DNA from: Elusimicrobiaceae bacterium
GTDB taxonomy: Bacteria; Elusimicrobiota; Elusimicrobia; Elusimicrobiales; Elusimicrobiaceae
Assembly: GCA_016283355.1 (NCBI GenBank)
Contig: JAEEMS010000013.1
Coordinates: 1 to 64,000, forward strand
Direction of reading: 5' to 3'
DNA: 64,000 nt
The translations under genes were made by a program, and so were the position numbers. Below are positions 1 to 60,060 of this stretch, one piece after another. The notes under the pieces were generated by a model that did no database searches, was not told where the DNA came from, and saw only the letters and a list, made by a program, of their open reading frames with translations. Within the stretch, counting starts at the first letter, position 1. Every line of letters starts with the position of its first letter.

Positions 1-1596
1 AACCAAACGGCGGACCAGTTAGTGGTAGAAAGCTCCTACAGTGGTGATGCTACCTTATCCTTAAGGAACGTTGGCGCGACAGCCAATGCCACAACCGGGG
101 ATGGCATCAAGCTGGTAGATTTTGCAGATGGTGCGACGGTAAATGGGTCGTTTAATTTGGCCGGCGGCAAATGGGAAGAAGGGGCGTATGAATATACGCT
201 CAATCAAGGGACGGACCGGGACTATTACTTACGCAGTAATGGGGAAGATCCGTACACAGACACATTTAAGACGATGTTAAACATCCCGATGTTAAACGTA
301 ATAGTAGCGCAGACGGGCATGAACTCATTACAACGTCGTTTAGGTGATTTGCGCAATATGGACAACACCAACAAACGCAACGGGGTATGGGTACGCAACT
401 ATTATAAAGACATGACGGTAAGCGACCTGATAGACACGGACATGAACCTATTTGGCGGGGAAGCAGGGTATGACTGGTTATTTAGAGCCGATGAACCGAC
501 AAAACTCTATGCAGGTGTGTTGGTAGGGTATGTAAAGGCGGATGGTATTAAGACGAAGAAAGACAACGGCGCGTATGAGAAGGGAGACGGAGAATCTCCG
601 ACGGTAGGTATTTATGCGACGTTGATGGACCAATCGGGGTGGTTTGTAGATATAGCGGCGAGGAACTTCTGGACGAAGCTAAACATGAAGCATCATGAGA
701 ACCTGGGCTCGACGTTATTGACATACACGCCGAAGCGGAACCTATTGACAGCGAGTGTAGAGGTAGGTAAGAGCATAGAGAACCGCACGTCACGGAATGA
801 CTACGTGAGGATAGAGCCGAAGGTAGAGTTGTCATACTTAAAAGCGGGGAAAGATACGGCAGAAGTAAGCAATGGGAAAGAGCTGACGTATGACTCTGCA
901 GATTATATCAATGCGAAGGCGGCGATCTTGTTATCGTACAATCACATCCGCAACAACGGGTTAATTATCGAGCCGTTGTTAGAGTTAGCGTACCGGTATG
1001 AATTTGCCGGGGAAGGGGATGTGACGTATGATGGTGTAAAGGAGAAGACGAGCTTAAAAGGCGGAACGGCAGAGGTGAATGCGGGGTTGAACATGCAGTT
1101 GACGAAGGACCTGTACTTCTATGCGTTAGGGAGCTATGAAGCCGGCGAGAAGATGAAAGGATGGGGTGTACATGCGGGGATCCGGTATACGTTTGGGGAA
1201 GATGCGAACAATTATCGGCCGACGCAACAGCGGTATACGCAAACGCAGTATACACGTCCGACAAACAATACGCAGCAACGGCAACAGCGATATATCCAAA
1301 CGCAGCAGCGGTATACACGTCCCAGCAGCACGCAGCAGACGCAGACGCGGTACGTGACGCAGCAACAGACGACGTATACACAACCGGTGCAGACGCGGTA
1401 TGTGACGCAGCAGACGACGTATACGCAACCGGTACAACAGCGGTATGTAACGCAACAAACGACGTATACGCAACCGGTGCAAACGCAGCGAACGGTGACT
1501 ACTACTACGACAACGACGAACGCGACGAATGCGGGAGATCCGACGTTACGAGGTTTTAGGAAGCCGAAGAAGATCCAATACATCAAAGACAATTAA
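1..1596 (+). CDS. Autotransporter beta-barrel protein, 3' part, with repetitive C-terminal tail
   Basis: The frame is open to the window edge, so the start and most of the passenger lie upstream. From about codon 110 of the visible part the protein looks like an autotransporter beta domain: alternating amphipathic strands such as WVRNYYKDM, YAGVLVGYV and FVDIAARNFW, ending near HAGIRYTFG. In typical members that strand is the C-terminus. Here about 130 more residues follow, rich in Gln, Thr, Tyr, Pro and Arg, including three near-identical 15-16 residue units built on RYVTQQTTYTQPVQ, then a Thr run and a basic end (GFRKPKKIQYIKDN). By family knowledge the barrel sits in the outer membrane and exports an N-terminal passenger. 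The tail would lie in the periplasm, and its role is unknown. A 157-bp copy of the gene end recurs at 3103-3259. The barrel call is good; the passenger is not visible. Confidence 0.8.
   Translation, partial: NQTADQLVVESSYSGDATLSLRNVGATANATTGDGIKLVDFADGATVNGSFNLAGGKWEEGAYEYTLNQGTDRDYYLRSNGEDPYTDTFKTMLNIPMLNVIVAQTGMNSLQRRLGDLRNMDNTNKRNGVWVRNYYKDMTVSDLIDTDMNLFGGEAGYDWLFRADEPTKLYAGVLVGYVKADGIKTKKDNGAYEKGDGESPTVGIYATLMDQSGWFVDIAARNFWTKLNMKHHENLGSTLLTYTPKRNLLTASVEVGKSIENRTSRNDYVRIEPKVELSYLKAGKDTAEVSNGKELTYDSADYINAKAAILLSYNHIRNNGLIIEPLLELAYRYEFAGEGDVTYDGVKEKTSLKGGTAEVNAGLNMQLTKDLYFYALGSYEAGEKMKGWGVHAGIRYTFGEDANNYRPTQQRYTQTQYTRPTNNTQQRQQRYIQTQQRYTRPSSTQQTQTRYVTQQQTTYTQPVQTRYVTQQTTYTQPVQQRYVTQQTTYTQPVQTQRTVTTTTTTTNATNAGDPTLRGFRKPKKIQYIKDN
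1348..1485 (+). repeat. Three tandem 45-48 bp coding repeats in the autotransporter tail
   Basis: Copies lie at 1348-1395 (48 bp), 1396-1440 and 1441-1485 (45 bp each), in frame, each encoding RYVTQQ(Q)TTYTQPVQ plus one or two residues. More degenerate versions (RYTQTQ, RYIQTQQ) lie just upstream from about 1231. Units differ mostly at synonymous positions. Confidence 0.85.
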
Positions 1597-1617
1597 GATT
1601 GGAAAGGCAAAAAATTA

Positions 1618-1643
1618 TCCCCCGGGTAACCGGGGGATTTTTG
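1618..1643 (+). terminator. Intrinsic terminator after the autotransporter gene
   Basis: A GC-rich hairpin with arms TCCCCCGG and CCGGGGGA and a GTAA loop is followed by a T run. A very similar hairpin follows the duplicated gene tail at 3281-3309. Confidence 0.85.
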
Positions 1644-1670
1644 TAGGACTATTATTTGGGGAAGATGAAA

Positions 1671-2765
1671 CTATTGCCGGGGGGAATTAACGCGGTCGCG
1701 AACTTTTTGAGCAACTTTTCTAGTATCCGGCGCAATTAGGCCATATTGTTGGGCATATAATTTAAAAATAACACACCACATTGGTTCTATCGTAGAAAAT
1801 TCGTCACTTTCTCCGATATGTTCCAAGCAGAAGTCATACATTTTTTTGGCATTATCCTTCATTTTTTTCGTAACAGGTTTGATAATGACAACCTCCCAAG
1901 CTTTTTGGGCTTGTGTAAGATCTTCTGATCCTAATTTGCCTACGATACTGGCCAATGCAGTAAGGTTGTAAGACTTGCCCGGCAGATGGTAATTTTGAGG
2001 GGATAGGATTTTTTCCAATAATTTGATTTTGAGAAGATAGAAGGGTTCCTTGTCCCCTGTTTCTTTCGCTCTGGACCAGGCTCCTTCTATGAACGATTGC
2101 GCGTCTTTGAATACATCTCTATAAGTTATATTATAAAGTCTGTCTTCTGCCAGATCAGAGGATTCTTTAGAGTGCCCGATTGTTTTGGCAAGAAGAACGG
2201 TGTCATACGCTTCAATTCCGAGTCGGTGGAGAACTGGTTTGTCCTTGATTACCGGAGCTGTGGGCCATATAAACAAATTTTCTTTGACAATGGGTTCTAG
2301 CCAAGTATTGTGCTTATAAATCTTATAGAACTTTACCGAATTCTCTTTGTCGAATTTACCAGCATCGTAAGGATTACTCCCATAGAGGTAACGATAATGC
2401 TTAGCTAATGCATCAGATAGAATATCTGAAAGACGTACTGCATTTAACACATAGTCGCGGTATATATATTTCGGTTCTTTGGCAGAGTGTTGTACATCTA
2501 CTGTGTCACGCCAGTCGCCAAAACAATAGGCGGGGATTTGATCTTTTCTAATTGTTCCTTCCGGGCACGGAGGAATAGAGTCAAGGAATTTTTTAGCTGC
2601 GGAGTACTGTTTAGTACGTAGCATTTCAAAAACCTTGGCGGTTAGTTGTTTGTGTGCTTTTCGAGATCCCGAGTAATTGGGTAAGTCGACAGGGTTATAT
2701 CCAAACGCAAGCGGGCCTAGGATTATAGCAAGGCCAATTGCACACATTTTTTTTAAGTTGTGCAT
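1671..2765 (-). CDS. Secreted protein of unknown family (364 aa)
   Basis: I do not recognise the family. The chosen ATG at 2765 is preceded by AAGGAG at good spacing and opens with a signal peptide (HNLKKMCAIGLAIILGPLAFG); an in-frame ATG at 2846 would put 27 charged residues ahead of it and lacks a clear ribosome site. The mature part is mostly helical and charged, with a few Cys (CPEG, YCFGDW, DFCLEH), and no catalytic motif is obvious. It lies tail-to-tail with the autotransporter gene and is the cargo of the first of two similarly flanked units. The 45-bp upstream element also found before the 865- and 1778-residue secreted proteins lies at 2892-2936. Function cannot be assigned. Confidence 0.75.
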   Translation of the reverse strand: MHNLKKMCAIGLAIILGPLAFGYNPVDLPNYSGSRKAHKQLTAKVFEMLRTKQYSAAKKFLDSIPPCPEGTIRKDQIPAYCFGDWRDTVDVQHSAKEPKYIYRDYVLNAVRLSDILSDALAKHYRYLYGSNPYDAGKFDKENSVKFYKIYKHNTWLEPIVKENLFIWPTAPVIKDKPVLHRLGIEAYDTVLLAKTIGHSKESSDLAEDRLYNITYRDVFKDAQSFIEGAWSRAKETGDKEPFYLLKIKLLEKILSPQNYHLPGKSYNLTALASIVGKLGSEDLTQAQKAWEVVIIKPVTKKMKDNAKKMYDFCLEHIGESDEFSTIEPMWCVIFKLYAQQYGLIAPDTRKVAQKVRDRVNSPRQ

Positions 2766-2891
2766 GTCTTTCTCCTTATGCCTGTTATACCGTTGTACAG
2801 CGTTTTTGACTCCGTTGGGTAACGGTACAGGCATTTTATGTTTCATCTTTTGTGTTTCTCTTACTATTAATGCATATTAAAGTGGTAGTGC

Positions 2892-2949
2892 ACCAGGGCC
2901 AAAAGGCCCAGCCAAAAAAAGAAAAAGGGCCTAGATGCTTTATAGGTCC
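2892..2949 (-). promoter_or_regulatory. Composite upstream element, copy A
   Basis: Read toward the gene at 1671-2765, the element has GGACCTATA, 4 nt, ATCTAGG, then 33 nt further on CTGGT, which closes the palindromic box GGGCCTTTTGGCCC. The 45-nt core (2892-2936) aligns without gaps to copies at 51694-51738 and 59992-60036. Its inner end may serve as a -35 region. That role is inference; the repeated layout is seen directly. Confidence 0.6.
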
Positions 2950-17258: not shown

Positions 17259-18056
17259 TCATTCAACATCAACAGATATCCTAAAATTAATTGGAGCAGA
17301 AGGAATATATTTTACTCGCTTAGGGGATTCATATGTGTAAGCTCCCCCGGGTTTTGTTTGATGAGCAGAAAAATATAGCACATCACTAGAAATCGACCCC
17401 GTTGTAAACTTTACAAAGAGGCCACGCGTCCAGTAAGCGTTACCTTGAGCGTCCCATTTGCTGATATATTGGGTACGAGTTACACGTACTATGCCAAACT
17501 CGTTGCTCGTGTGGCTATTCCTTCGATCAGCAATGGCATCCATACATCCCGGCCATGCTTTACATATCTTTTCATTAGGGAAAAGAATACTGAGATTTTC
17601 CACTAAAGCATGAGTAGAAGGTTCCTGCGGCAACGGGTGCCCTGGGAATTTATTTCGCATTTCGGTGGGCGGAAGATATTTGACATTTCCACCCTTTTTA
17701 TCTGAAATCCGCAAAAATTCATAAGCTTTTATTTGACCGTTTTCGCGGGTTTGTGCGTAAAAACGGTGCCACCACACGGCTTCTTTTCCATCCCAGTCGG
17801 GAATCCAATGTGCGACTTCAGTATCTATCAACTGAAAAGAAACAGTATTGGCAGATTTTAGTCCTACCCATTCCTGGCAGCCGGGCCATTCTTCGCACAT
17901 TTGTTTCACGCGTTCATCAGCATAGAGGTTGCGTTGCTTAACAGCCGCTTTCTTTGCATTGGTGGCCAATTCTTTTGCAGAGGGTTCTTTAGCAACAGAT
18001 GCAACGCTAATTAAAACCAATGCAAAAGTCGTTGTTAGTGTTATTAGTTTTTTCAT
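17259..18056 (-). CDS. Secreted paralog-family protein, array member 5
   Basis: Last of five tandem paralogs on the minus strand; 265 residues from the ATG at 18056, after AATGGAGTGATT. The signal peptide is KKLITLTTTFALVLISVASVA. The family core is visible: RVKQMCEEWPGCQEWV, then QLIDTEVAHWIPDWDGKEAVWWHRFYAQT, a FPGHPLPQEPSTHA motif and a second Cys-Trp block, ICKAWPGCMDAIA. The C-terminus differs most from the other members. I do not recognise the family. Paired Cys within CEEWPGC suggest a disulfide in an exported protein. Confidence 0.75.
   Translation of the reverse strand: MKKLITLTTTFALVLISVASVAKEPSAKELATNAKKAAVKQRNLYADERVKQMCEEWPGCQEWVGLKSANTVSFQLIDTEVAHWIPDWDGKEAVWWHRFYAQTRENGQIKAYEFLRISDKKGGNVKYLPPTEMRNKFPGHPLPQEPSTHALVENLSILFPNEKICKAWPGCMDAIADRRNSHTSNEFGIVRVTRTQYISKWDAQGNAYWTRGLFVKFTTGSISSDVLYFSAHQTKPGGAYTYESPKRVKYIPSAPINFRISVDVE
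17864..17912. repeat. 49-bp perfect repeat shared by array members 5 and 4 (copy 1)
   Basis: Identical to 18674-18722. It encodes the Cys-Glu-Glu-Trp-Pro-Gly-Cys motif region, while flanking coding sequence differs. Confidence 0.85.
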
Positions 18057-18068
18057 AATCACTCCATT

Positions 18069-18863
18069 TTAAAAAATAAAGTCCGGGTGGTAAGGACATT
18101 GGTTAATTTTGTGCGGATTGTGATGAATATAAGCCCCACCCACTTTTTTTTGCTCTGTATAGAATGCCAAAGAAGCGCTTCCGCCGGAATAATAGTAAAG
18201 TTGTACATACAAACTGCGCGCCCAAAGAGCGTTGCCGTTTTCATCATAGTTATGAATATACTGTTCCTCTACTGCTTTACTGATACTGGCCATTTTTTCT
18301 TTAAGCAGTTCTTTACACTTATCCCATTTTAGACATTTCGCTAAACTATCGTTGGATGTAGTAGACACGTGGTAACGTGCGTGCTCGGAAGGGTGTTCTT
18401 TTATCGGATGTTCCGGAAATTTTTTAATTTCATCAGGAATGAGATAAATATACCCGCGGCTTTCCTTGATGTATTTGAGAGTGTCGGTATGAGAATTATC
18501 CCTGTCTATTTTAATTCGTTCAAAGCGGTAGGCCTTTGCTTTGCTACCTTCCACTGTTTGCAGATAAAAGATATGTTTCCAAAGGGTCTCATTTTTCTCA
18601 AAATGAGTTATCCTGTGTTCTATTTCCGCATCAATCACGTGGAAGGAGCCGGGTTGCTGGGCGGCGCGGTTGGCTACCCATTCCTGGCAGCCGGGCCATT
18701 CTTCGCACATTTGTTTCACGCGTGGTTTGCTGTAAATAGAGGCATATTTGCTTGTTTCCCGTTTTACGGCCGCTGCCAATTCTTTAGGGGTGCTCTTGGC
18801 GTATACATAAGAAACGCTTGCCAAAATGAGCAAGGTACTGATAATCACAAATAATTTCTTCAT
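18069..18863 (-). CDS. Secreted paralog-family protein, array member 4
   Basis: 264 residues from the ATG at 18863, preceded by GAGGAGCATAAA; an upstream ATG at 18956 would lie inside the previous gene and put 31 polar residues before the signal peptide KKLFVIISTLLILASVSYVYA. It shares VKQMCEEWPGCQEWVANR, DAEIEHRI, KKFPEHPIKEHPSEHARY and a second block, LAKCLKWDKCKELL. A 49-bp stretch coding the Cys-Trp motif is identical to one in member 5. Function unknown. Confidence 0.75.
   Translation of the reverse strand: MKKLFVIISTLLILASVSYVYAKSTPKELAAAVKRETSKYASIYSKPRVKQMCEEWPGCQEWVANRAAQQPGSFHVIDAEIEHRITHFEKNETLWKHIFYLQTVEGSKAKAYRFERIKIDRDNSHTDTLKYIKESRGYIYLIPDEIKKFPEHPIKEHPSEHARYHVSTTSNDSLAKCLKWDKCKELLKEKMASISKAVEEQYIHNYDENGNALWARSLYVQLYYYSGGSASLAFYTEQKKVGGAYIHHNPHKINQCPYHPDFIF
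18674..18722. repeat. 49-bp perfect repeat shared by array members 5 and 4 (copy 2)
   Basis: Identical to 17864-17912, within array member 4. Confidence 0.85.
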
Positions 18864-18879
18864 TTTATGCTCCTCATCA

Positions 18880-19668
18880 TTAGTGACGTATAAAGAAGGC
18901 AAAATCAGGTTGTCTGTCTGCTTCCTGCAAAACAGAGTTTGCCTTTTTTGCATCAATATATTTAAACGGTTCCCCTAATTTATTTTGGCGTGCTATTAAT
19001 GCCCCTTTAGGGAAGGAAAGGACATTTAGAAACCAAGGGGCCCAATCCAAGCGGCGCACCCAAAGCGGGTTGTCTTTTTCATCCCAAAGAACGCGTTGTT
19101 GTTCTATGGCGCTCATTACCTGTAACCAGGAATTATCCATCATGGAGCCGGCCCATCTTTTGCGTAGTTTGTTGTCTTTCGGGAGGTCAACGGGGCCAAT
19201 TTCCCAGGTTTCTATTACACACTTAGCGTGTTCGGAAGGCATATCGGTAAACGGGTGTCCGGGGAATTTCTTAATTTCCTTAAGATCAAAACCGAATTCC
19301 TTATCCTTTGCGATAACATAAGCTCGTGTTTGTAAATCTTCCATTGTTTTTATGTACAAGTTGTAATGCCAAATGGATGCTACGCTCCATGGGGATTTCT
19401 TCTCTGGGTTAGTAACATAATATTCCACTTCCGCATCAATAATGTGGAAAGAAGGGTTTTTCTTGTGCTGTTCTTTGGCCCATTTTTCACAACCGGGCCA
19501 TTCTCGGCACATTGTTTTTACGCGGTCGAACATATAGTATTTTTCCTGTTCCAACACTTTACGCGCGATATTGGACTTCAACTTGGAAGTTGTGGCCTGT
19601 GCATATGTGGGTACCAAGCTGATTAAAATGAGTGTTGCACTGAGTAATAAGCAATATAATTTTTTCAT
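18880..19668 (-). CDS. Secreted paralog-family protein, array member 3
   Basis: 262 residues with signal peptide KKLYCLLLSATLILISLVPTYAQ. Family landmarks: RVKTMCREWPGCEKWAKEQ, HIIDAEVEYYVTNPE, KKFPGHPFTDMPSEHAK, DEKDNPLWVRRLDWAPW, and the C-terminal block NKLGEPFKYIDAKKANSVL. It is most like members 1 and 2. The first 92 coding bases are identical at 91 positions to those of member 2, whereas the mature parts diverge. The next gene starts 16 nt after its stop. Function unknown. Confidence 0.75.
   Translation of the reverse strand: MKKLYCLLLSATLILISLVPTYAQATTSKLKSNIARKVLEQEKYYMFDRVKTMCREWPGCEKWAKEQHKKNPSFHIIDAEVEYYVTNPEKKSPWSVASIWHYNLYIKTMEDLQTRAYVIAKDKEFGFDLKEIKKFPGHPFTDMPSEHAKCVIETWEIGPVDLPKDNKLRKRWAGSMMDNSWLQVMSAIEQQRVLWDEKDNPLWVRRLDWAPWFLNVLSFPKGALIARQNKLGEPFKYIDAKKANSVLQEADRQPDFAFFIRH
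19577..19668. repeat. 92-bp near-perfect repeat covering the signal peptide of member 3
   Basis: Matches 20366-20457 at 91 of 92 positions. It spans the start codon, signal peptide and the first mature residues. Confidence 0.85.
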
Positions 19669-19698
19669 AAAATATCCTTTAATACCTTTATCCTATCT

Positions 19699-20457
19699 TT
19701 AGAGAGAAAAATTAGGAGTATCCGAGGAAGATGTTCTATGCAAAATTGAATTTGAATTCTTCGCATCAATATACTTAAACGGATCTCCCAATTTTTGTTG
19801 ACGGGCGATTAATGCCCCTACACGCGTTTTATCGTCAACGGCCCCGGCAAGAGTAAAATCAAGGCGACGTTCCCATCTCGGATTATCTCCATTCTTGTCC
19901 CAAATGACGCGTTGTTGCTCGCTGGCCCATCGAATATGCGGCCAAAAAGGTCCTATGGCTTGGGGCCATTTTTTATATATTTCACTACCTACGTATTTGG
20001 AGTGTTGTGCAGGCATATTGGTAAACGGATGCCCCGGAAATTTTTTGATTTTTTCAGGTAAGGGACGAAAATACTGTTTAGTACTTACAGGAACCGCATA
20101 AATTGTTTGGAGTCTTGCGCGAAACAAGTAAACTTGCGGCCGCCAATCCTCAAACACTTCTATATAAAGGTTATAGGCCCAAACAAGTTCCACGGGGTCT
20201 ATTACGTAGTATTCCACTTCCGCGTCTCTGATTTTAAAGGACGGGTTTTCTTTGTAGCGTGCCATGGCCCATTCCTTGCATTTGGGCCATTCCTCGCATA
20301 TTATTTTTACGCGGTCGGACATGTAAAAATCTTCACGTTCTAATAATTTGTGCACAATGTTGGATTTCAACTTGGAAGTTGTGGCCTGTGCATATGTGGG
20401 TGCCAAGCTGATTAAAATGAGTGTTGCACTGAGTAATAAGCAATATAATTTTTTCAT
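19699..20457 (-). CDS. Secreted paralog-family protein, array member 2
   Basis: 252 residues from the ATG at 20457, which overlaps the stop of member 1 in ATGA and so is translationally coupled. The signal peptide KKLYCLLLSATLILISLAPTYAQ is almost that of member 3. Landmarks are RVKIICEEWPKCKEWAMAR, IRDAEVEYYVIDP, KKFPGHPFTNMPAQHSK, WDKNGDNPRWERRLDF and KLGDPFKYIDAKNSNSIL. An upstream ATG at 20499 is rejected because it lies inside the neighbouring gene. Function unknown. Confidence 0.75.
   Translation of the reverse strand: MKKLYCLLLSATLILISLAPTYAQATTSKLKSNIVHKLLEREDFYMSDRVKIICEEWPKCKEWAMARYKENPSFKIRDAEVEYYVIDPVELVWAYNLYIEVFEDWRPQVYLFRARLQTIYAVPVSTKQYFRPLPEKIKKFPGHPFTNMPAQHSKYVGSEIYKKWPQAIGPFWPHIRWASEQQRVIWDKNGDNPRWERRLDFTLAGAVDDKTRVGALIARQQKLGDPFKYIDAKNSNSILHRTSSSDTPNFSL
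20366..20457. repeat. 92-bp near-perfect repeat covering the signal peptide of member 2
   Basis: Matches 19577-19668 with one difference (Val/Ala in the signal peptide). Confidence 0.85.
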
Positions 20458-21350
20458 TTGTTTGATACCTCTTTTGGGCGATATACTACCGTAATACAAA
20501 AATGTGGAATATAGTGTGCCCTAATTAAAATAGAATTCGCTTTTTTCGCATCAATGTATTTAAACGGTTCTCCTAATTTATTTTGGCGCGCAATCACCGC
20601 ATATCTTTTCATATCTTCGACAGGATATATGCCGGAGAATATAATGTAATCAAAGCGGCGCTCCCAGCAGGGATTGCCGTTTTTGTCCCAAATAACACGC
20701 TGTTGTTCCACGCCTCTTCCCATTTGCCACCAATGTTCATCAGATATTTCCGGCCATCTCTGGCGCATTTTTTTGCTGTGGTAGGGGGCTCCATAACGCT
20801 CTTCCAATTCGTACCTGGCATGGTTGGAGGGCATATCAGTAAATGGGTGGCCGGGGAACTTTGCGATTTTTTGAGGAGTGTCCGGGAAAGAATAAGGATT
20901 TTCGGATTTGTGATTAATTTCCGTTCTAAATACGTAAAATTGTTCTTGTAAATTTTCCAACACTTTTACGTAAAAATTGTGTTGCCAAAAAGGCCATCCA
21001 GAATTCTGTTCAACATAATATTCCACTTCCGCATCAATAATGGTAAATGATGGATTTTCCTTTCGGCGTGTCATGGCCCATTCCTTGCATTTGGGCCATT
21101 CTCGGCACATTGTTTTTACGCGGTCAAACAAATAATACTTTTCACGTTCTAATATTCTGTTACGTTCTGATATCCTGCGCGCTACGTTGCTTTGGAGAGC
21201 AGATTGTGGCTGGTCATCTATAAGACATTTGCGGGGGTGAGCTTGTCTAGTGTTAGCTTGGGAAGTTTGGGCTTGTACATATACCGGGGCAAGCAGAAAA
21301 CTCGCAGACATCAACATAAGTATTCGTTTCAAGGTAAACAATTTCTTCAT
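20454..21350 (-). CDS. Secreted paralog-family protein, array member 1
   Basis: First gene of the array, 298 residues from the ATG at 21350 (ribosome site GGAGCGAACA). Signal peptide KKLFTLKRILMLMSASFLLAPVYVQA. A member-specific insert of about 45 residues (HPRKCLIDDQPQSALQSNVARRISERNRILERE) precedes the shared core: RVKTMCREWPKCKEWAM, IIDAEVEYYVEQNSGWPFWQHNFYVKV, AKFPGHPFTDMPSNHARYE and NKLGEPFKYIDAKKANSIL. A partial copy of the composite upstream element lies at 21407-21451, so all five genes probably share this promoter. Confidence 0.75.
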   Translation of the reverse strand: MKKLFTLKRILMLMSASFLLAPVYVQAQTSQANTRQAHPRKCLIDDQPQSALQSNVARRISERNRILEREKYYLFDRVKTMCREWPKCKEWAMTRRKENPSFTIIDAEVEYYVEQNSGWPFWQHNFYVKVLENLQEQFYVFRTEINHKSENPYSFPDTPQKIAKFPGHPFTDMPSNHARYELEERYGAPYHSKKMRQRWPEISDEHWWQMGRGVEQQRVIWDKNGNPCWERRFDYIIFSGIYPVEDMKRYAVIARQNKLGEPFKYIDAKKANSILIRAHYIPHFCITVVYRPKEVSNK

Positions 21351-21406
21351 TGTTCGCTCCTGTAAGGATACATTTTCCAAAATTCTATAATTTCCCCCAG
21401 ATTATC

Positions 21407-21451
21407 GCAAGGGCCAAAAGACCCAAGTGTTGCGTGGGCCTTTTGACGCCT
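21407..21451 (-). promoter_or_regulatory. Composite upstream element, partial copy D, before the paralog array
   Basis: Read toward the array, the near-palindrome TGGGTCTTTTGGCCC is followed by CTTGC, as in copies A-C. Upstream, an inverted partner GGCGTCAAAAGGCCCA replaces the ATCTAGG half. A TATAGA box follows at 21384-21389, and the first gene starts 57 nt below the element. Confidence 0.45.
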
Positions 21452-49045: not shown

Positions 49046-51643
49046 TTAAAAGTGTGTAGGATGTCTTACCCTTTTTGGCGCATTTTGTAACGGTAAATCT
49101 TCACTACGTGGGTTTGGGCTTTCTTTTTCTAACGATGAAGGATTCTTAGAATGCTTTGGATGTTTGTATTCTATGATTTCTTCTATTAATTGTCCAAACT
49201 TCCCAAGTAGGTCAAATTCTGCATCTCTTAGTTGGTAATATTCCTTTTCTCGGGGCACAATGAATTTGTCGAAAGACTGCCAAACATTATCGGGAATTAT
49301 TTCAAAGGGATGTTTCCACCTTAAATTCCGAGCTTCGCCTAATACTCTCTTTGCTTCCTGTTCTGAAACTCTTCTTTCGAAAACGAGGTAATACCTATAA
49401 TTTGTAACTTGCGAATATAATTTCTTAATGCTGATGTTGTATTTGTCTATATTTCGAAACATTTCCTCAAACTGATAATAAGTTTTTTCAGCTTTATCCA
49501 ACCATTCTCTATATTCACGGAGGTAATCATCGGCTTGGCTGCCAAGTGCTTCAAATTGTTTCAGCTGCAATCCTGGGTACAGTTGCTTCCACTCGGCTTC
49601 CATATCGGGAATTCCTTCGTTATTGTCAAGATCTTGATTCTTTTTCTGGAAATCCGCCAAATATGTATCTTCCTGTGCTTTTTCGGCCATGGCTTCCTCG
49701 TATTCTTGAGCCAATACTTGCTGCTCGTTTAATCCGTCGAAAAATAGCTCTTCTTCAAATGCGTTTTGCCTATCGTCAAGCATCTCATCCCAAGCTTTTT
49801 CACTATGGTTATTGTCAAGGTCCTGATTTTTTTTCTGGAAATCCGCAAAGTATGCATCTTCCTGTACTTTTTCGGCCATGGCTTCCTTGTATTCTGGATC
49901 CAATATTTGTTGCTCGTTTAATCCGTCGAGAAGTTGCTCTTCTTCAAATGCGTTTTGCCTATCGTCAAGCATCTCATTCCAAGCTTTTTCACTTTTCCGC
50001 GTAGGCAGTTGTTGTTTTTTAAGTTTTGAATTTTTTCTACGGAAATCGTCAAAAGACACGGTTTCCAGAATGTTGTGCTGTTCTTTTATCCTTTCGTCTA
50101 TAGCAAAATCCTCTGCAAGATTTTCCCAATATTGAAGTTTAAACGTTAATTGATCAAATGCCTTCATCAGATCTCGACGTCTTTGTTCCAATGTGTAGAC
50201 CCACATTTCTATCTTGTTATACTTGATTAATTGTTTTGATATAAGTTTCGGTAGACCCGCATCTAAATCCCAACGGAAAGGTCTGGTTTTTAGTAAATTC
50301 CTATAATAAGCAGTTTGCGCTTTTAATCCGGTGCTTTGCAAGTCCATGCCCTCATTTTTTTGGAATGTCTGCTTAAGATGACGATAAGTATCCTCCATTT
50401 CGTCAAGCCATTCATTATATGTGCGAATTTGAATTATATATCCGTTAGCGAGTTCATTTTGTTCTTTCAATTGTTTTTTCAAAGCCCTTTGTTCTGCCAA
50501 GGCCTGCTCTCTTTCTATTGCCTCTATTCTCCTTTGCAATTCATCTCCTTGTTTTGCTTCCGTATCGAGGTTTGTTTGGAGTTCTATGTTTTGTTGACGC
50601 CACTGTGCAAACGCTTTTCTTTCCTGTGCAAGTTCCCAATTGGATGCCACATCCTCGGGGAGGGGAATTCGGACGGTGGGTTGGGGCAATACTTGTTCTC
50701 TAAAAGGGGTATCTGTCTTCAATGCAAACTCAGTTTTTTCCCAAAACGGTTCTTCGTTCGTGGCTTGCGGGAATTGCTGTGCATAATCATAAAGTTTTTT
50801 AAGCAACTGATATTCCCGTGTTTCCGGGTTTCCTTTTTGTAGAGCCATTGCAATTCCGTCTGCTATACGTTTCTCCTCTTTAGGAAAACGAACTCCTGGC
50901 GACAGTCTGGATCCTTTCTCAAAAAGATACCCTTTTAAGATGAAGTAGTATTTTGTACATGCGTTTCCATATTCGGCGCGTTCATTGAGCATTTCGTGCC
51001 ACGGTATCGGGTTCACTAACATCATCTCTCTTGCAAGGAAAAATTCCGGAACTCCATCTATCGTTGAGGTTCCGTTTGTTTGGGGAAAATACCCGTGTTC
51101 ATAAAAAAACGAATCTGCCAAATTGTTGATAATATCTTCCGTGACGGCTCGTTCCTCTGGAGTTAAATACGGGTTACTCAAACTAGTGGGCAGAGCGCCT
51201 TTGTTTTTATATAAAGCAACCAAATTGGCTTCGTGCTTTCCCATCTTTTCCATCTCTGCCATGGAAGGGAGCCCATGTGCGGCCCCTAAACTTGCGGGGT
51301 TTAAATCCACATCAATATGGGTGTGAGTGTTGAAAGGGAGTAGATCCTCCGGAACCGCCTGCGCCGCCGCACGTTGTATGTCTGCCTTTGATACAATCAC
51401 TGTTCCAGGTTTGCCCGCTCTCCTGGCTAGTTCTTCTTTCCATAATTTGGTAGCAATTTGTTCCAATAGCCCCATCTTCGCTCCCGGATTCTTTGCGCGT
51501 AAGTGCTCCAATATTTTGGCACGGTTTTTTGCAACCTTTTGCCATCCGTTTGTAATGATTTTCCCCTGAGCAAAAGCCATACCGCAGCCCAAGCAAAGCA
51601 CCAGGGCTAACGTGAACAATTTTTTAATAGACATTGGTTTCAT
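49046..51643 (-). CDS. Large secreted protein of unknown family (865 aa)
   Basis: The signal peptide KKLFTLALVLCLGCGMAFAQ begins at residue 7; the ATG at 51643 has GAGGATATAAG before it. The N-terminal 300 residues are mixed (IDVDLNPASLGAAHGLPSM, YFPQTNGTSTIDGVPEFFLA). From about residue 330 the protein is Gln/Glu/Lys-rich and helical, probably coiled coil. Residues about 549-674 contain a 63-residue unit twice (EKAWxEMLDDRQNAFEEE through ADFQKKNQDLDNN). No catalytic motif or known domain is seen. Element copy B lies 51 nt upstream. Function unknown. Confidence 0.8.
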   Translation of the reverse strand: MKPMSIKKLFTLALVLCLGCGMAFAQGKIITNGWQKVAKNRAKILEHLRAKNPGAKMGLLEQIATKLWKEELARRAGKPGTVIVSKADIQRAAAQAVPEDLLPFNTHTHIDVDLNPASLGAAHGLPSMAEMEKMGKHEANLVALYKNKGALPTSLSNPYLTPEERAVTEDIINNLADSFFYEHGYFPQTNGTSTIDGVPEFFLAREMMLVNPIPWHEMLNERAEYGNACTKYYFILKGYLFEKGSRLSPGVRFPKEEKRIADGIAMALQKGNPETREYQLLKKLYDYAQQFPQATNEEPFWEKTEFALKTDTPFREQVLPQPTVRIPLPEDVASNWELAQERKAFAQWRQQNIELQTNLDTEAKQGDELQRRIEAIEREQALAEQRALKKQLKEQNELANGYIIQIRTYNEWLDEMEDTYRHLKQTFQKNEGMDLQSTGLKAQTAYYRNLLKTRPFRWDLDAGLPKLISKQLIKYNKIEMWVYTLEQRRRDLMKAFDQLTFKLQYWENLAEDFAIDERIKEQHNILETVSFDDFRRKNSKLKKQQLPTRKSEKAWNEMLDDRQNAFEEEQLLDGLNEQQILDPEYKEAMAEKVQEDAYFADFQKKNQDLDNNHSEKAWDEMLDDRQNAFEEELFFDGLNEQQVLAQEYEEAMAEKAQEDTYLADFQKKNQDLDNNEGIPDMEAEWKQLYPGLQLKQFEALGSQADDYLREYREWLDKAEKTYYQFEEMFRNIDKYNISIKKLYSQVTNYRYYLVFERRVSEQEAKRVLGEARNLRWKHPFEIIPDNVWQSFDKFIVPREKEYYQLRDAEFDLLGKFGQLIEEIIEYKHPKHSKNPSSLEKESPNPRSEDLPLQNAPKRVRHPTHF
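49620..49997 (-). repeat. Two tandem 189-bp coding repeats
   Basis: Period 189 bp: the segment starting at 49620 recurs at 49809 with scattered differences, in frame, giving two 63-residue units in the 865-residue protein. Confidence 0.9.
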
Positions 51644-51693
51644 CTTATATCCTCAAGTCCCTACTATGAGCGTACCTCTTTAAAAAGGGAAAT

Positions 51694-51756
51694 ACCAGGG
51701 TCAAAAGACCTAAAATAACAAGGTTTTTGGACCTAGATGAAATATAGGCCTTTTGG
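51694..51756 (-). promoter_or_regulatory. Composite upstream element, copy B
   Basis: Read toward the 865-residue protein gene: AAAAGGCCTATA, 4 nt, ATCTAGG (51738-51732), then at the same distance as in copies A and C the palindromic AGGTCTTTTGACCCTGGT. The 45-nt core is 51694-51738. Confidence 0.65.
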
Positions 51757-51803
51757 GAAGGGCAAGATTAAGGATTTCGTACTTATTTTAGGAGGGAAAA
51801 GCA

Positions 51804-54596: not shown

Positions 54597-57500
54597 TTAT
54601 TTCCAATTTCGACGGTCTGTCTGATGGTGACGATAGGAAGAGAATACTGCTCCTTTGTATGCCATTTGTAAGGTCATGAAGTCCATCATCTCCGCATCTA
54701 TATCTTCTTCGTTATAGATGGATTCCAACCTGGCAAGGAATACTTCATATTGCTCTCCGATTTCGTCTTGTAATTGATCGGTGAGGGTAATATTGTTCTC
54801 CTCTAATTCTGCATAGAGTAAAACCATATCAAATGTGATGAACGTTTTGGCAACTTCGTTCCACGTTTCTTGGCTGGTTTCGGGTGCATGGGCAAATTTG
54901 CTCCAGAATTTTGTATCTTGTGCCGCCTTTTTTTGATATTTATACGTGGTATTTTGCAATATCAAATTGGCGTCAGATTGCTGTTTGTATCTTTCCATGA
55001 ATTTCTCGCCTTCGGACCGTTCAGAATCCAGGTCAATTTTTTGGAGTTCTTGATTTCTTGCCTCAAAGGTGGCTCGCACTTCTTCACCGTATTCCGGATA
55101 AACCAGCGCCAAGGCCTGTTTTAAGCCGTCTTGCAAGAAGAATGTTTTTATTTCTTCCTCATTCATGATTTTGGCGTTTTGGCTGTCAAATCGTATGGCT
55201 AAGTTTTGCAATTTTGCCATCTTCTTCTTGTCGGACAAATCTTGATCCCAAATTTTTTGTCTGTCGTCTATATACTTATTCCATCTGGCCACAATTTGGT
55301 TCACAAATTCGGGGTCCGTCTGTGCATACAAGAAAAACTCCGGAGCAGCTAAGAATTGTTGGATCTTGTACTGCTGTATGCGAAGATCTTGTTCTTTCAA
55401 CGCTTTGTTCCCGGCTTGTTGCTTTTCCTTTAGAGTCCGTTTATCACTCAAAATAACGCTGCGGGCCTTATCATAAATTGCATCTATTTGTTGTTTGAGC
55501 GTAGGATCTGGAATTTCCTGGGGGAATATTTTTCTTTGGCTTGTTTTGGAGAAATTCACTATCAACGCTATTTCCGTCAACGTATTTTTGAATTCTTTTA
55601 CTAAGGTTTCCTCTCTTTGTTGAGACGTGATGGTTGTATTGGTCCGGATGGTTTGTACCCGGTTCAAATAATTGTCAAAGGAAGTGTTAATGCTTTCGCG
55701 AGGGCTCATTTGCTTTTTCTTGCCATCGGCAGAGCGTGTTTCCTTGGTATCTGTTTTGTCATCTTCATCGAGCTGAGAAATAGCATCCGCTTTTCCTCTG
55801 GCTATTTCCACATCCGTTTGGATCCATTTAGCCAATGGTTCTATATTTTTAGCGTTTGAAGATTCGATAATATTAATAGCATTATTGTAGATGGTGCCAA
55901 TATTTTCCAATAATTTGTCATCGGATCGGCTCAGAGATTGAATTGTTTTATCTTTCTTTACTTTCTCCCTTAAATTCCCTAATTCTGTTTTAATGTATTC
56001 TATGCCGGATTTTTCCGCCATCTTTTGCAGGGTCTCCTGTCCAAGAATTTTTTTGGTCTCAACGTAATAATTGTTAAGGAGTAATTCTTCTTCTTGATCA
56101 TCCGTTATAAGACGTAATTCGGACCATTTTGCCGTTTGGATTCCCAACTCATTTTTTATGTTTGTATACATTCTCCAAATGGGGAGGAGCGGCAAGAAGA
56201 ACGTAATTCCCTCATACGAAGAGGCAGGTTTAAGGGCATCCGTTAAAATAGGCCCTTGAGTTTCTTCTTTTTTATTTCCTTCCTGAGAGGCCTTTTTTTC
56301 CTCTTCTGCCAAAAATTCTCTGAGTGCTGGTTTGTCCTGTAAGAGTTTTTGCATGTCTTGATTGGCAAACACTTCACTCATCTTAAGGAAGGCATCTTGT
56401 ATAATTTTTACTTGATCCGCTATTAAAAGAGTGCCGAAGAATATTGTATTCCCGGAAAATTGAGAAAGCGAGAACCGTTGTAAACCGGCGGCTACCGATT
56501 TCAAGTTTGCGGGAATCCATTCCGGGGCTGCCGCACGGGAAAAAGCGGGTGCTACTTTCACTTGCGGCAGGATCTTGCGTAAAGCATTTATGGTACGGGC
56601 AGCTCTTCCGGTCCCGTTAGACAAAATCAACGGCGTAGCCAAATCGGCGGCTGCACGGATTTGGGTTCCATAGAAGAGTGCATAGACCTCGTTCATCATT
56701 AGGGAAGTGGCGTGCGTGGTGAATCCGTCCCCAACAAAGGTAGCAACCTGTCCTTTCAGTACATCTGGGAAAGCTCTTTCCCCTGCAAGTTGCCATTCTC
56801 TCAAAGTGGTTTTTACAGCTCCGGAGTTTTCTATTATTTCTTTTGTAGTTACGATCGCTGTGGAATTTTCCGCCGTTTCTTTTGCAACCATACCTCCCAG
56901 TTTTTTTGTGGAGGATTTTGACAGCGATCCTTTGGGTAATATATACACGGGGGTTGTATGCTCGAGTTCTTGCAAAGCTTCCTTCGATAAATTCGGAAGC
57001 AATTGTATGCCGCTTTCTGTTTCAACGTAAACATCTACTCCGCCCTGTTGCAACAGCTTCGCTTCAATTCTGCTTTGCAATCTTAATTTCTCTGAAATGG
57101 CACTACGCTCCCCGGATGCAAGTTTTTTCATAACGGTTCCCGGTTTTCCGCTGACAACTTCCCACTGGTCTTGTCTTAACATGGCATTACCGATGTCAAC
57201 ATAATTTGCTTTTTTGGGAACAGTCAATCTCCACTCTGTTATGCTTACTACACCGTTAGCGTCAAGGACGGGTTGGCTGGCAAAAAGTCCGCCTTCTTCC
57301 AATTTCCCTTCTTTGATTAGTTTTTTTAATTCTTTATTGCTACGGATCGGTTTGTCTATTATTTGACCGTTTTTTTCTTCACGCGTAAAGAACGTTACAA
57401 GATTACGCTTTTTCGCGGCCCCTCTAATCAATTCGGATGCTTGGGCACCTGTTTTTTCGCTTTCAAAGAACACTTTCAAAGCGGCTTTCCAAGGTGATTT

Positions 57501-59933
57501 GAATTCTTCTTCTGCCAGTTGCTCGGGGGTGGGTTTCCACAGGGTTACTCCTCCCGAATTTGCCGGGACGAGTTCCTTTCCTACATTCGAAGCCCGCTGT
57601 GCGGCGGCCTCTGTGCCTAAATTTTTTGCACCTTGTGCGGCCGCTTTTTTGGTAAAATTCTTTGCCCCTTGTTCCGCGGCTTCCGTGGCAAACTGGGCTG
57701 TTTGTTTGGCAGCAAAACGTGACTCGTCTGCGGCGACTCCCCATGCGCCGGATTGTCTTACCTGTTGGGCAACTTTCTCAGTAGCTGTACCGCGTAATTC
57801 CTTGGCCGCGGGTTTCCAAGTTTTGCCGGTGTAGTTAATAGTTTTTATTTCACGCTGCAGGCGGGCTGCCCGGTACGCGGCCTTTGCTTGTTTGTAAGAA
57901 CGAGGTAAAGAGGCAAAGAGCCCGCGCGCCATACGATACCCTCTAGCGATTCTTGCAAAAGCCATTTCAGGAATGAATACCCACAAAATTACCTCTTTGA
58001 AAAAACCGGCAACGCCGTTTAGAGTAGAGGCAGCGTAAAGAGATTTGTTATTATTGATACTGTGTACAACACAAGGCAAAGGTTGAGAAAAACGCGGGCC
58101 TTGCCCGGGGGCACTGATAACACCGCCGGGAGGGGAAAAACGATGTATTATTTCCGCCAATCGGTTTGCTAACTCGTCGACTTTACTGGGCCCCAATCCA
58201 TAAATAGAATCGGTATGTTGTTCCGGGGTTTGTGCCAACGGGCAGTAGATTTGTGTGGCGCGAAAGGCAAAAAATTCGTTCAAATCCGTATCCAAAATCG
58301 GTAAGGAAGCCCAAAGCGGCCCAAAGGAAGTCGGAAGGTTCAGCTCATCTTTTTTTGGTTTTGCCAAATAATTTTGGGAGAAAAAACTGGCCGTTTCCAC
58401 CGCCGCCAAGCGGATAGGGAGTATATATTCCTGGTCCTTTCCTTCTTTGTCAGTCGGGCCTACAAACTCTACCAGTTGGTTCATGATCTCTTGCAAAGAA
58501 GAATCGGAAACAGACGCTTGTTGTACCATTTCATTAATGGTACTGAAGACAGAGGCCACAACAGGAGCAAAATGATAATTTAGTTTTTCTCCGCCGATTT
58601 CATCAAAGGGAGTGTCGATCATATCCTCAAATTTTCTATGTCCCCGGGCCTTATTCACTAAGGAAACGAGATCTTTCAATTGTTTCGGATCGTTTAAAAG
58701 GGTGTATTTGGTGGCCTCGGAAGCTAAAAAGATAGCTTGCTCAAACTCTTGAGAAGTTTGGCTGGATTTGGTTTTATTCAAATAGGATTCCATTTCAGCG
58801 ATAAAATCATTTTGCATTTTCTCCAACAGTGCTCTTTGGGAAGCGCGCTGGATCTCAGGGTTGTCATCCCCGCGTTGAAACTTGCCGAATCCTGTTTCTA
58901 AAGGAGTGACTTGTTTATCATGAAAAGTGGTAGGGTTGGGAATGTCGTTATCCAAATAGAATTTGATAATTTTTAACAATGCAATACGCAATTCCGAAAG
59001 CGCCAAGATGTCAAGGACACTGGATTCTGTTTTCAATTTTTCTTTCAATTCATTAATTTTTTTCAATAAAATAACTTGAATGTACAGTAAATCAACACGG
59101 TAAGGATGTTTTGTTTCCCACAGATTATCTTTATTGGTAGCAAGCGCCTTTAGGCCTTCTTTATTGTTATTACCCACCACGTAAGGAAACATTTCCACCG
59201 TATTCCCCAGCAACGTAGCCGCAACGGCCACTAATTCGGGGTCTGCTGGAGGAAGAAGTGCTTGGTCAACCGGACTGATATATCCGATTAAATCCTCGAA
59301 CTTAACCCCGTCTTCTTCATGTTCAATTTTATACGCCAGTCCGGAAGCACTTCTTACTTGCGGACCGATGGTAGGTATATCCGGATTTGTAAATTTTTCT
59401 GCATAATGGGAAACAGAATGATTGGAAGATTTTTCATTTTCCATCTCTTGCAAGATTTTAGTTGTGATGAAAGAGCGGCTTTGCATTTTCTTTTTGAAGA
59501 AATCAATTGAGTCCTTCAAATCTTTCAAATGTTGTAAAGATTTATCATGTTGTTTAAAATCATATTTATCCAGAGACTTTTCCAACTCTTCATCCCGTTC
59601 TATGTTGTATAGTTGTACATACATCTTGTAGTATTCTTCGATATTAGCGACGTCCGCTTGGAACCTTTGGGTAATTTGTTTCCAGGCAGTATTGTTCATG
59701 GCTTCACGAAGTTCTTTCAGTTCTTTCCAAAGCACGGCTTGCCGCGTGAAATCTTTTGCGCGCGTAGCTTGGAGCAATTCTTTTTGCAGTTGATTGTAAC
59801 GTTTTGCGTTTTCTAGAGAATCATTGGCCTCTGTTTCTACATAAGAACCTGTAAAATTTGCATTGGCAAATGCCGGTACACACATGTTAAACAGTAACGA
59901 AAAAATAAGAATTTGCGCTAAAATTTTCTTCAT
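54597..59933 (-). CDS. Giant secreted protein of unknown family (1778 aa)
   Basis: Signal peptide KKILAQILIFSLLFNMCVPAFA; the ATG follows GAGGAAGTT. The first 600 residues are helical and charged. Around residue 650-690 is a hydrophobic stretch (GVAGFFKEVILWVFIPEMAFARIA). Then come basic helices and three degenerate 13-residue units, AAEQGAKNFTKKA, AAQGAKNLGTEA and AAQRASNVGKEL. A mid-region (residues 900-1100) has beta-rich segments (GGLFASQPVLDANGVVSITEWRL). The C-terminal third is again helical and charged with a possible coiled coil. I recognise no domain. It could be an adhesin, a surface-structure protein or a toxin scaffold, but nothing in the sequence decides this. Element copy C lies 59 nt upstream. 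Confidence 0.8.
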   Translation of the reverse strand: MKKILAQILIFSLLFNMCVPAFANANFTGSYVETEANDSLENAKRYNQLQKELLQATRAKDFTRQAVLWKELKELREAMNNTAWKQITQRFQADVANIEEYYKMYVQLYNIERDEELEKSLDKYDFKQHDKSLQHLKDLKDSIDFFKKKMQSRSFITTKILQEMENEKSSNHSVSHYAEKFTNPDIPTIGPQVRSASGLAYKIEHEEDGVKFEDLIGYISPVDQALLPPADPELVAVAATLLGNTVEMFPYVVGNNNKEGLKALATNKDNLWETKHPYRVDLLYIQVILLKKINELKEKLKTESSVLDILALSELRIALLKIIKFYLDNDIPNPTTFHDKQVTPLETGFGKFQRGDDNPEIQRASQRALLEKMQNDFIAEMESYLNKTKSSQTSQEFEQAIFLASEATKYTLLNDPKQLKDLVSLVNKARGHRKFEDMIDTPFDEIGGEKLNYHFAPVVASVFSTINEMVQQASVSDSSLQEIMNQLVEFVGPTDKEGKDQEYILPIRLAAVETASFFSQNYLAKPKKDELNLPTSFGPLWASLPILDTDLNEFFAFRATQIYCPLAQTPEQHTDSIYGLGPSKVDELANRLAEIIHRFSPPGGVISAPGQGPRFSQPLPCVVHSINNNKSLYAASTLNGVAGFFKEVILWVFIPEMAFARIARGYRMARGLFASLPRSYKQAKAAYRAARLQREIKTINYTGKTWKPAAKELRGTATEKVAQQVRQSGAWGVAADESRFAAKQTAQFATEAAEQGAKNFTKKAAAQGAKNLGTEAAAQRASNVGKELVPANSGGVTLWKPTPEQLAEEEFKSPWKAALKVFFESEKTGAQASELIRGAAKKRNLVTFFTREEKNGQIIDKPIRSNKELKKLIKEGKLEEGGLFASQPVLDANGVVSITEWRLTVPKKANYVDIGNAMLRQDQWEVVSGKPGTVMKKLASGERSAISEKLRLQSRIEAKLLQQGGVDVYVETESGIQLLPNLSKEALQELEHTTPVYILPKGSLSKSSTKKLGGMVAKETAENSTAIVTTKEIIENSGAVKTTLREWQLAGERAFPDVLKGQVATFVGDGFTTHATSLMMNEVYALFYGTQIRAAADLATPLILSNGTGRAARTINALRKILPQVKVAPAFSRAAAPEWIPANLKSVAAGLQRFSLSQFSGNTIFFGTLLIADQVKIIQDAFLKMSEVFANQDMQKLLQDKPALREFLAEEEKKASQEGNKKEETQGPILTDALKPASSYEGITFFLPLLPIWRMYTNIKNELGIQTAKWSELRLITDDQEEELLLNNYYVETKKILGQETLQKMAEKSGIEYIKTELGNLREKVKKDKTIQSLSRSDDKLLENIGTIYNNAINIIESSNAKNIEPLAKWIQTDVEIARGKADAISQLDEDDKTDTKETRSADGKKKQMSPRESINTSFDNYLNRVQTIRTNTTITSQQREETLVKEFKNTLTEIALIVNFSKTSQRKIFPQEIPDPTLKQQIDAIYDKARSVILSDKRTLKEKQQAGNKALKEQDLRIQQYKIQQFLAAPEFFLYAQTDPEFVNQIVARWNKYIDDRQKIWDQDLSDKKKMAKLQNLAIRFDSQNAKIMNEEEIKTFFLQDGLKQALALVYPEYGEEVRATFEARNQELQKIDLDSERSEGEKFMERYKQQSDANLILQNTTYKYQKKAAQDTKFWSKFAHAPETSQETWNEVAKTFITFDMVLLYAELEENNITLTDQLQDEIGEQYEVFLARLESIYNEEDIDAEMMDFMTLQMAYKGAVFSSYRHHQTDRRNWK

Positions 59934-59991
59934 AACTTCCTCACCATTAAGATTACCTTACATACATAGTATAATGGAGGGGGGAATTTTT

Positions 59992-60053
59992 ACAAGGGTC
60001 TTTGGACCTAGATAAAGGGGACCAAAAGGCCTAGATTGATGGTAAAAAGGTCC
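59992..60053 (-). promoter_or_regulatory. Composite upstream element, copy C, with promoter
   Basis: Read toward the 1778-residue protein gene: GGACC, then ATCTAGG (60036-60030), a second ATCTAGG at 60012-60006, and GGTCCAAAGACCCTTGT at the same spacing as copies A and B. TTGTAA at its inner end is 17 nt from TATACT at 59972-59967, a good -35/-10 pair. Confidence 0.65.
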
Positions 60054-60060
60054 TATAGCA

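What the first reader, a model, noticed from the sequence alone, without database searches (positions are those of the whole stretch)
51694..51756. A 45-bp composite element before three large or unknown secreted-protein genes, with invariant spacing
Three minus-strand segments (2892-2936, 51694-51738, 59992-60036) align over 45 positions without a gap. Each begins, in gene direction, with ATCTAGGYC and ends with a palindromic GGYC-TTTT/AAA-GRCC box followed by CTKGT, with exactly 40 nt from the first A to the C of CTKGT. In A and B a further CTATA lies 4 nt upstream of ATCTAGG. Inner edges lie 51 and 59 nt from the start codons in B and C, and 46 nt from an upstream ATG in A. All three genes encode signal-peptide proteins of no recognised family. 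This suggests a shared regulator or specialised promoter for a secreted-protein regulon. The alignment is direct; the regulatory role is inference.
Basis: partly seen in the sequence, partly recalled or inferred. Interest (0 to 1): 0.75.

Follow-up and report, generated by a model that had tools for sequence, protein, structure and literature searches.

The report
Secreted-protein regulon promoter element
The three sequence boxes are copies of a promoter-activator site that sits at a fixed place just upstream of about 50 mostly unrelated genes for exported proteins of unknown function, and one small RNA, in a group of gut bacteria (Elusimicrobiaceae), which points to a single master switch for much of what these bacteria export.

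Summary
The three boxes are real (21 of 45 columns identical; none in 60 simulated windows). The genome (Elusimicrobiaceae) holds about 50 copies. Of 52 analysed sites, 48 lie outside ORFs although 92% of the window is ORF. 47 of 52 precede a gene with an N-terminal signal peptide, median 55 nt to the start codon.

The grammar is fixed: TAGGYC-N4-GRCCCTKGT abuts a TTGT/TGGT -35; a TANNNT -10 follows 17 bp later, so its dyad lies at -42.5. A second forward unit lies 23 bp upstream, often with an inverted unit 15 bp beyond. Best reading: a tandem class II activator site on ordinary sigma-70 promoters. RNA is unlikely: the box precedes the -10 and its arms do not covary. The site is enriched in three genera of the family, absent or weak elsewhere in the order. 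The recurring non-secreted target is a conserved terminator-ended small RNA with a covarying stem.

The regulator is unproven. Two NarL/FixJ response regulators are the candidates; one has the base-contact residues of DevR/DosR, whose sites look similar. LytTR, AraC and true CRP proteins were not found in the genus.

The parts
51694..51738 (-). Site B: two forward units 23 bp apart (distal 51735-51718, proximal 51712-51695)
   Evidence: Profile R1 46.4 bits; read directly
51745..51757 (+). Site B: inverted upstream unit TAGGCCTTTTGGG
   Evidence: Read directly; inverted units recur about 15 bp above the outermost forward unit
51669..51697 (-). Site B core promoter: -35 TGGTAT (51697-51692), 17-bp spacer, -10 TACGCT (51674-51669)
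   Evidence: Offset as in the alignment of 52 own sites
49046..51643 (-). Target B: 865-aa exported protein, no Pfam match
59992..60036 (-). Site C: two forward units (distal from 60033, proximal 60010-59993); a third forward unit starts at 60055
   Evidence: Profile R1 41.8 bits; related sites kept downstream of phoH in many species
59968..59995 (-). Site C core promoter: -35 TTGTAA (59995-59990), -10 TATACT (59973-59968)
   Evidence: Read directly; offset statistics
54597..59933 (-). Target C: 1778-aa exported protein, no Pfam match
2892..2936 (-). Site A: two forward units 23 bp apart; proximal unit 2910-2893, -35 TGGTGC (2895-2890); -10 weak (ATTAAT near 2871-2866)
   Evidence: Profile R1 39.4 bits; read directly
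1671..2765 (-). Target A: 364-aa exported protein from the ATG behind AAGGAG; one of about six paralogues among the targets
21403..21427 (-). Site D: single-unit site (TGGGTCTTTTGGCCCTTG, 21425-21408), -35 TTGCGA, -10 TAGAAT (21387-21382)
   Evidence: Profile R1 13.9 bits; context
20454..21350 (-). Target D: exported protein, no Pfam match, first of five adjacent signal-peptide genes (17259-21380)

Best explanation
The element is the operator of a transcription activator placed for class II activation. A dimer binds the proximal palindrome TAGGYC-N4-GRCC, centred at -42.5 and touching a weak -35 (TTGT/TGGT) of a sigma-70 promoter with a 17-bp spacer and a TANNNT -10, and helps RNA polymerase bind. 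A second dimer on a unit 23 bp upstream (two helical turns, same DNA face), and often a third on an inverted unit, add cooperativity. It co-activates some 50 promoters, nearly all of genes for exported, lineage-specific proteins, plus a small RNA. Shown by sequence: the site, its grammar, its position, its targets, its range in the family. Inferred: binding, activation, cooperativity. More tentative (about 0.6): the protein is a NarL/FixJ response regulator, either the family-specific, HisKA_3-paired one (G000:C28) or the order-wide, DevR-like one (G000:C2).
For: About 50 sites; 47 of 52 before signal-peptide genes, 48 of 52 outside ORFs. Fixed 23-bp period, -35 and -10 at fixed offsets. 40 independent sites in other genomes behave alike; site kept at the same locus in many species. 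Targets mostly unrelated proteins, so the site was not simply copied with one gene. Arms uncoupled and box above the -10, so DNA not RNA. Two NarL/FixJ regulators are conserved in the genus; C2 shares DevR's base-contact residues; OsdR consensus AGGGCCGATCGGCCCT has the same GGYC-N4-GRCC frame; DevR sites are closely packed and overlap the -35.
Against: No expression or binding data. The C2 regulator and its recognition helix are unchanged in genomes without the site. The C28 regulator is also in two genera where the site is not enriched. Not all regulator families were searched. Signal peptides were called by a heuristic.
Confidence: 0.78

Rival explanations
1. Same class II operator geometry, but the activator comes from a protein family not searched here (for example XRE, MarR or LysR) rather than from the NarL/FixJ family. 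This is a rival to the named regulator, not to the class II reading.
For: Only CRP, LytTR, AraC, LuxR-HTH and receiver-domain families were searched.
Against: The GGYC-N4-GRCC frame, the tandem packing and the -42.5 position fit DevR-type NarL/FixJ sites.
Confidence: 0.35
2. Repressor operator: a dimer over the -35 blocks polymerase until a signal releases it.
For: The proximal unit touches the -35; LexA, a repressor, is present.
Against: The -35 is consistently weak (TTGT/TGGT) and the site always abuts rather than covers the core promoter; multiple phased upstream units are typical of activators.
Confidence: 0.12
3. Promoter of an alternative sigma factor, the box being its -35 recognition element.
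For: A promoter class with a common upstream sequence.
Against: The conserved sequence reaches some 60 bp above the -10 in phased units, and the -35/-10 themselves resemble sigma-70 hexamers with a 17-bp spacer.
Confidence: 0.05
4. Cis-acting RNA element (leader hairpins) of secreted-protein mRNAs.
For: Each unit is a short inverted repeat.
Against: The unit lies above a well-placed -10; C..A arms (10) are as common as C..G (9), so arms do not covary; no Rfam match.
Confidence: 0.03
5. Dispersed repeat or small mobile element that happens to lie between genes.
For: Many copies in one genome, with inverted symmetry.
Against: Copies share only the units and core promoter elements, not flanks; orientation and distance to the gene start are fixed; the site is kept at one locus across species.
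Confidence: 0.02

Closest known systems
DevR/DosR dormancy regulon of Mycobacterium tuberculosis and OsdR of Streptomyces coelicolor (NarL/FixJ response regulators)
   Same: Palindromic GG-rich site with N4 centre (OsdR AGGGCCGATCGGCCCT), two or more closely packed sites, the proximal one overlapping the -35, about 50 genes (PMC5069765, PMC3029386, PMC4973870)
   Different: Targets are exported orphan proteins rather than dormancy genes; strict 23-bp period plus an inverted unit; regulator not proven; the DevR-like candidate is also present where the site is missing
VraR/LiaR-type NarL/FixJ regulators of cell-envelope stress
   Same: VraR is the closest solved relative of both candidates; envelope-related output
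   Different: No resemblance of the DNA site was tested; targets here are secreted proteins
Sigma-E envelope regulon of enteric bacteria with its small RNAs (from my own knowledge)
   Same: One regulon couples envelope or exported proteins with a small RNA
   Different: Here an upstream activator site on sigma-70-type promoters, not an alternative sigma factor; the small RNA's targets are unknown

Membership tests
DevR/DosR-type (NarL/FixJ) class II regulon | Palindromic site with GGYC-N4-GRCC frame | tested here: met
   Alignment of 52 own and 63 other sites; OsdR consensus
DevR/DosR-type (NarL/FixJ) class II regulon | Proximal site overlaps or abuts the -35, further sites closely packed | tested here: met
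   -35 inside the unit end, second unit at -23 in 30/52 and 45/63 sites; DevR rule from PMC3029386
DevR/DosR-type (NarL/FixJ) class II regulon | A NarL/FixJ response regulator with DevR base-contact residues is encoded | tested here: met
   C2 regulator KTVKN aligned to DevR 3c3w
DevR/DosR-type (NarL/FixJ) class II regulon | Regulator and site occur together across genomes | tested here: inconclusive
   C2 order-wide, C28 family-wide, site in three genera only
DevR/DosR-type (NarL/FixJ) class II regulon | Phosphorylated regulator binds the site and activates | not testable with these tools
   Needs EMSA, DAP-seq or reporter assays
LytTR, AraC or CRP/FNR operator | A regulator of that family is present in genomes with the site | tested here: not met
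   LytTR none; AraC none in 28 genomes of the genus; the CRP-like match in this genome is LexA
Cis-regulatory RNA | Element is transcribed and its paired arms covary | tested here: not met
   Box above the -10; arms uncoupled; no Rfam match
Dispersed repeat | Similarity extends over a unit irrespective of gene starts | tested here: not met
   Only units and core promoter conserved, fixed orientation and distance

The most novel reading that the evidence does not exclude
A single two-component system of the Elusimicrobiaceae is a master switch of the exported orphan proteome: one fixed promoter architecture recruited by some 50 mostly unrelated, fast-evolving exported proteins (some with ankyrin repeats, a trypsin-like protease, a 5'-nucleotidase), coupled to a family-specific C-rich small RNA that tunes their translation, serving interaction with hosts or neighbours in the gut.
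Probability: 0.3. Interest if true: 0.78.

Novelty: new member of a known kind. Interest (0 to 1): 0.62.

Why it matters
Elusimicrobiaceae are gut and rumen bacteria known mostly from metagenomes, and few of the targets match any protein family. One promoter signature now marks a coherent set of exported proteins, gives two regulator candidates and a co-regulated small RNA, and offers a way to find the exported orphan proteome of such genomes from DNA alone. A genome of a sister genus that also carries the site is a single 1.64-Mb contig, the size I recall for cultured Elusimicrobium minutum, so the prediction may be testable at the bench.

Tried and rejected
RNA element: rejected by position and uncoupled arms and no Rfam match. 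CRP/FNR: a promising hit in this genome turned out to be LexA. LytTR and AraC: not found in the genus. Co-occurrence did not single out a regulator. Control of the response-regulator genes by the site itself: only 3 hits in 68 response-regulator loci, none read as lying directly before the regulator gene. Literature searches found no description of such a motif or regulon in Elusimicrobia. A regular expression for recognition helices failed and was replaced by tblastn.

Full report
WHAT WAS CHECKED. Over 45 gapless positions 21 columns are identical in all three; a two-unit pattern matches exactly these three places in the window and none in 60 simulated windows of the same dinucleotide make-up. 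The window lies in a 1.4-Mb, 29-contig genome. Its PhoH protein is 92% identical to that of an Elusimicrobiaceae MAG and 84% to that of Candidatus Avelusimicrobium excrementipullorum, so the organism belongs to the gut and rumen Elusimicrobiaceae.

GENOME-WIDE SITES. The pattern TCTAGGYC-N15-30-GRCC gives 16 hits in the genome (14 distinct places) against 7 for the reversed pattern; the 14 lie just upstream of ORFs that begin like signal peptides. A sequence-only profile R1 from these 14 finds 76 matches at E<=1 and, with stricter filters, 56 at E<=0.01. I read 52 sites with their surroundings. 48 of 52 lie outside ORFs of 130 aa or more, although such ORFs cover 92% of the window. 47 of 52 are followed by an ORF that passes a signal-peptide heuristic, median 55 nt from site end to start codon; 19 of 55 window genes pass the same test, several of them membrane proteins or targets themselves (p = 2e-9). 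The five others are the small RNA (L041), a site before a Mur-ligase-like ORF (L042), the reverse reading of a place whose other strand does precede a signal-peptide gene (L050), and two near contig ends (L059, L063).

GRAMMAR. Aligning 52 own and 63 other sites on the proximal unit gives TAGGTCYWWNGRCCCTKG(T). The unit ends in TTGT or TGGT, a -35; where a good -10 (TANNNT) was found it mostly lies 20-21 nt after the 18-nt unit, that is with a 17-bp spacer. Taking that -10 as -12 to -7, the dyad of GGYC-N4-GRCC is at -42.5, the class II position. A second forward unit lies at exactly -23 in 30/52 and 45/63 sites; an inverted unit often lies about 15 bp beyond the outermost forward unit. The variable positions of the two arms are not coupled (T-A 48, T-G 41, C-A 10, C-G 9), which speaks against RNA pairing. 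In the window the fourth site, 21403-21427, is a single-unit example with TAGAAT exactly at the expected offset.

OTHER GENOMES. Across 149 genomes of the order, R1 at E<=1e-4 matches nearly all genomes of the genus and most in two sister genera (g12, g15) but almost none in the other family. The single proximal unit TAGGYC-N4-GRCCCT occurs 11.5 times per genome in the genus (reversed control 0.6), 20 (0) in g12, 2.7 (0.1) in g15, not above control in g13, g14 and g16, 2.2 (1.7) in most of the other family and 4.8 (1.75) in its genus g5, a mild excess I cannot explain. Forty sites from other genomes, none used for the profile, were read: 30 pass the strict test, L288 and L289 are plain signal peptides missed by it, and one pass (L274) is a false positive. 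Downstream of phoH, where site C lies, a proximal unit with CTGGAAA or similar and a TACAAT/TATAAT -10 is kept in many species.

THE SMALL RNA. The recurring non-secreted targets share a leader of roughly 60-90 nt ending in AACCGCTGYAG-loop-CTRCAGCGGTT and a CCC-TTTT tail, an intrinsic terminator with a C-rich loop (CCCAAACCC), in six species of the genus (next to tRNA-Met) and two of g12; g15 sites show a similar element with another stem. On eight sequences 97.7% of stem cells pair and four pairs show changes on both sides; none of 500 shuffles reaches the covariation score. No Rfam family matches it. A C-rich loop would suit pairing with GGAG-like ribosome-binding sites; that is inference.

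TARGETS. Of 47 target proteins few match Pfam: ankyrin repeats (3), and single cases of a trypsin-like protease, a metallophosphoesterase/5'-nucleotidase, HEAT repeats and a weak ChaN-like match. Most are unrelated to each other; one family of about six paralogues and a few pairs exist.

WHICH PROTEIN BINDS. No OmpR-type regulator was seen among eight receiver-domain matches. Genomes of the genus mostly hold two full-length LuxR-HTH regulators. The C2 regulator (227 aa, beside hybrid kinases) is 64-94% conserved through most of the order, and its recognition helix KT[VI]KNH does not change where the site is missing. It shares with DevR the three residues reported to contact bases (PMC4082495), and the OsdR consensus has the same GGYC-N4-GRCC frame (PMC5069765). 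The C28 regulator (216 aa), directly behind a HisKA_3 kinase, is well conserved only within the family, which fits the range of the site better, but it is also present in G094 and G113, where the site is not enriched. LytTR and AraC proteins were not found in the genus, and the CRP-like hit in this genome is LexA. Other regulator families were not searched. I give a NarL/FixJ regulator about 0.6, the two candidates being about equal.

LIMITS. Most genomes are drafts; the profile was trained on one genome and is biased to it; E-values are rough; the signal-peptide test is a heuristic; nothing here measures expression or binding. That G091 (one contig of 1,643,562 bases) is E. minutum Pei191 rests on my memory of its genome size.

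Noticed in passing
L041 about 1571-1655 (+) (G000:C5 about 17836-17920); also L071, L076, L086, L297, L299, L268, L273: A conserved small RNA with a C-rich loop and an intrinsic terminator is driven by the same element; its stem covaries and it has no Rfam match.
   Followed up: partly
window 2766-2846 (-): The leader of gene A holds an upstream in-frame ATG and a possible hairpin (GCCTGT...ACAGGC); a paralogue (L043) has a very similar leader.
   Followed up: no
window 17259-21380 (-): Five adjacent signal-peptide genes, two of them near-identical at the start (MKKLYCLLLSATLILISL), behind the single-unit site D.
   Followed up: no
window 22-1596 (+): ORF with an autotransporter autochaperone domain (Pfam AC_1) near its start, probably the C-terminal part of a larger protein.
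   Followed up: no
genus g5 of the other family: The single unit is mildly enriched (4.8 per genome, control 1.75) although the two-unit element is missing; an ancestral or simpler form of the regulon is possible.
   Followed up: no
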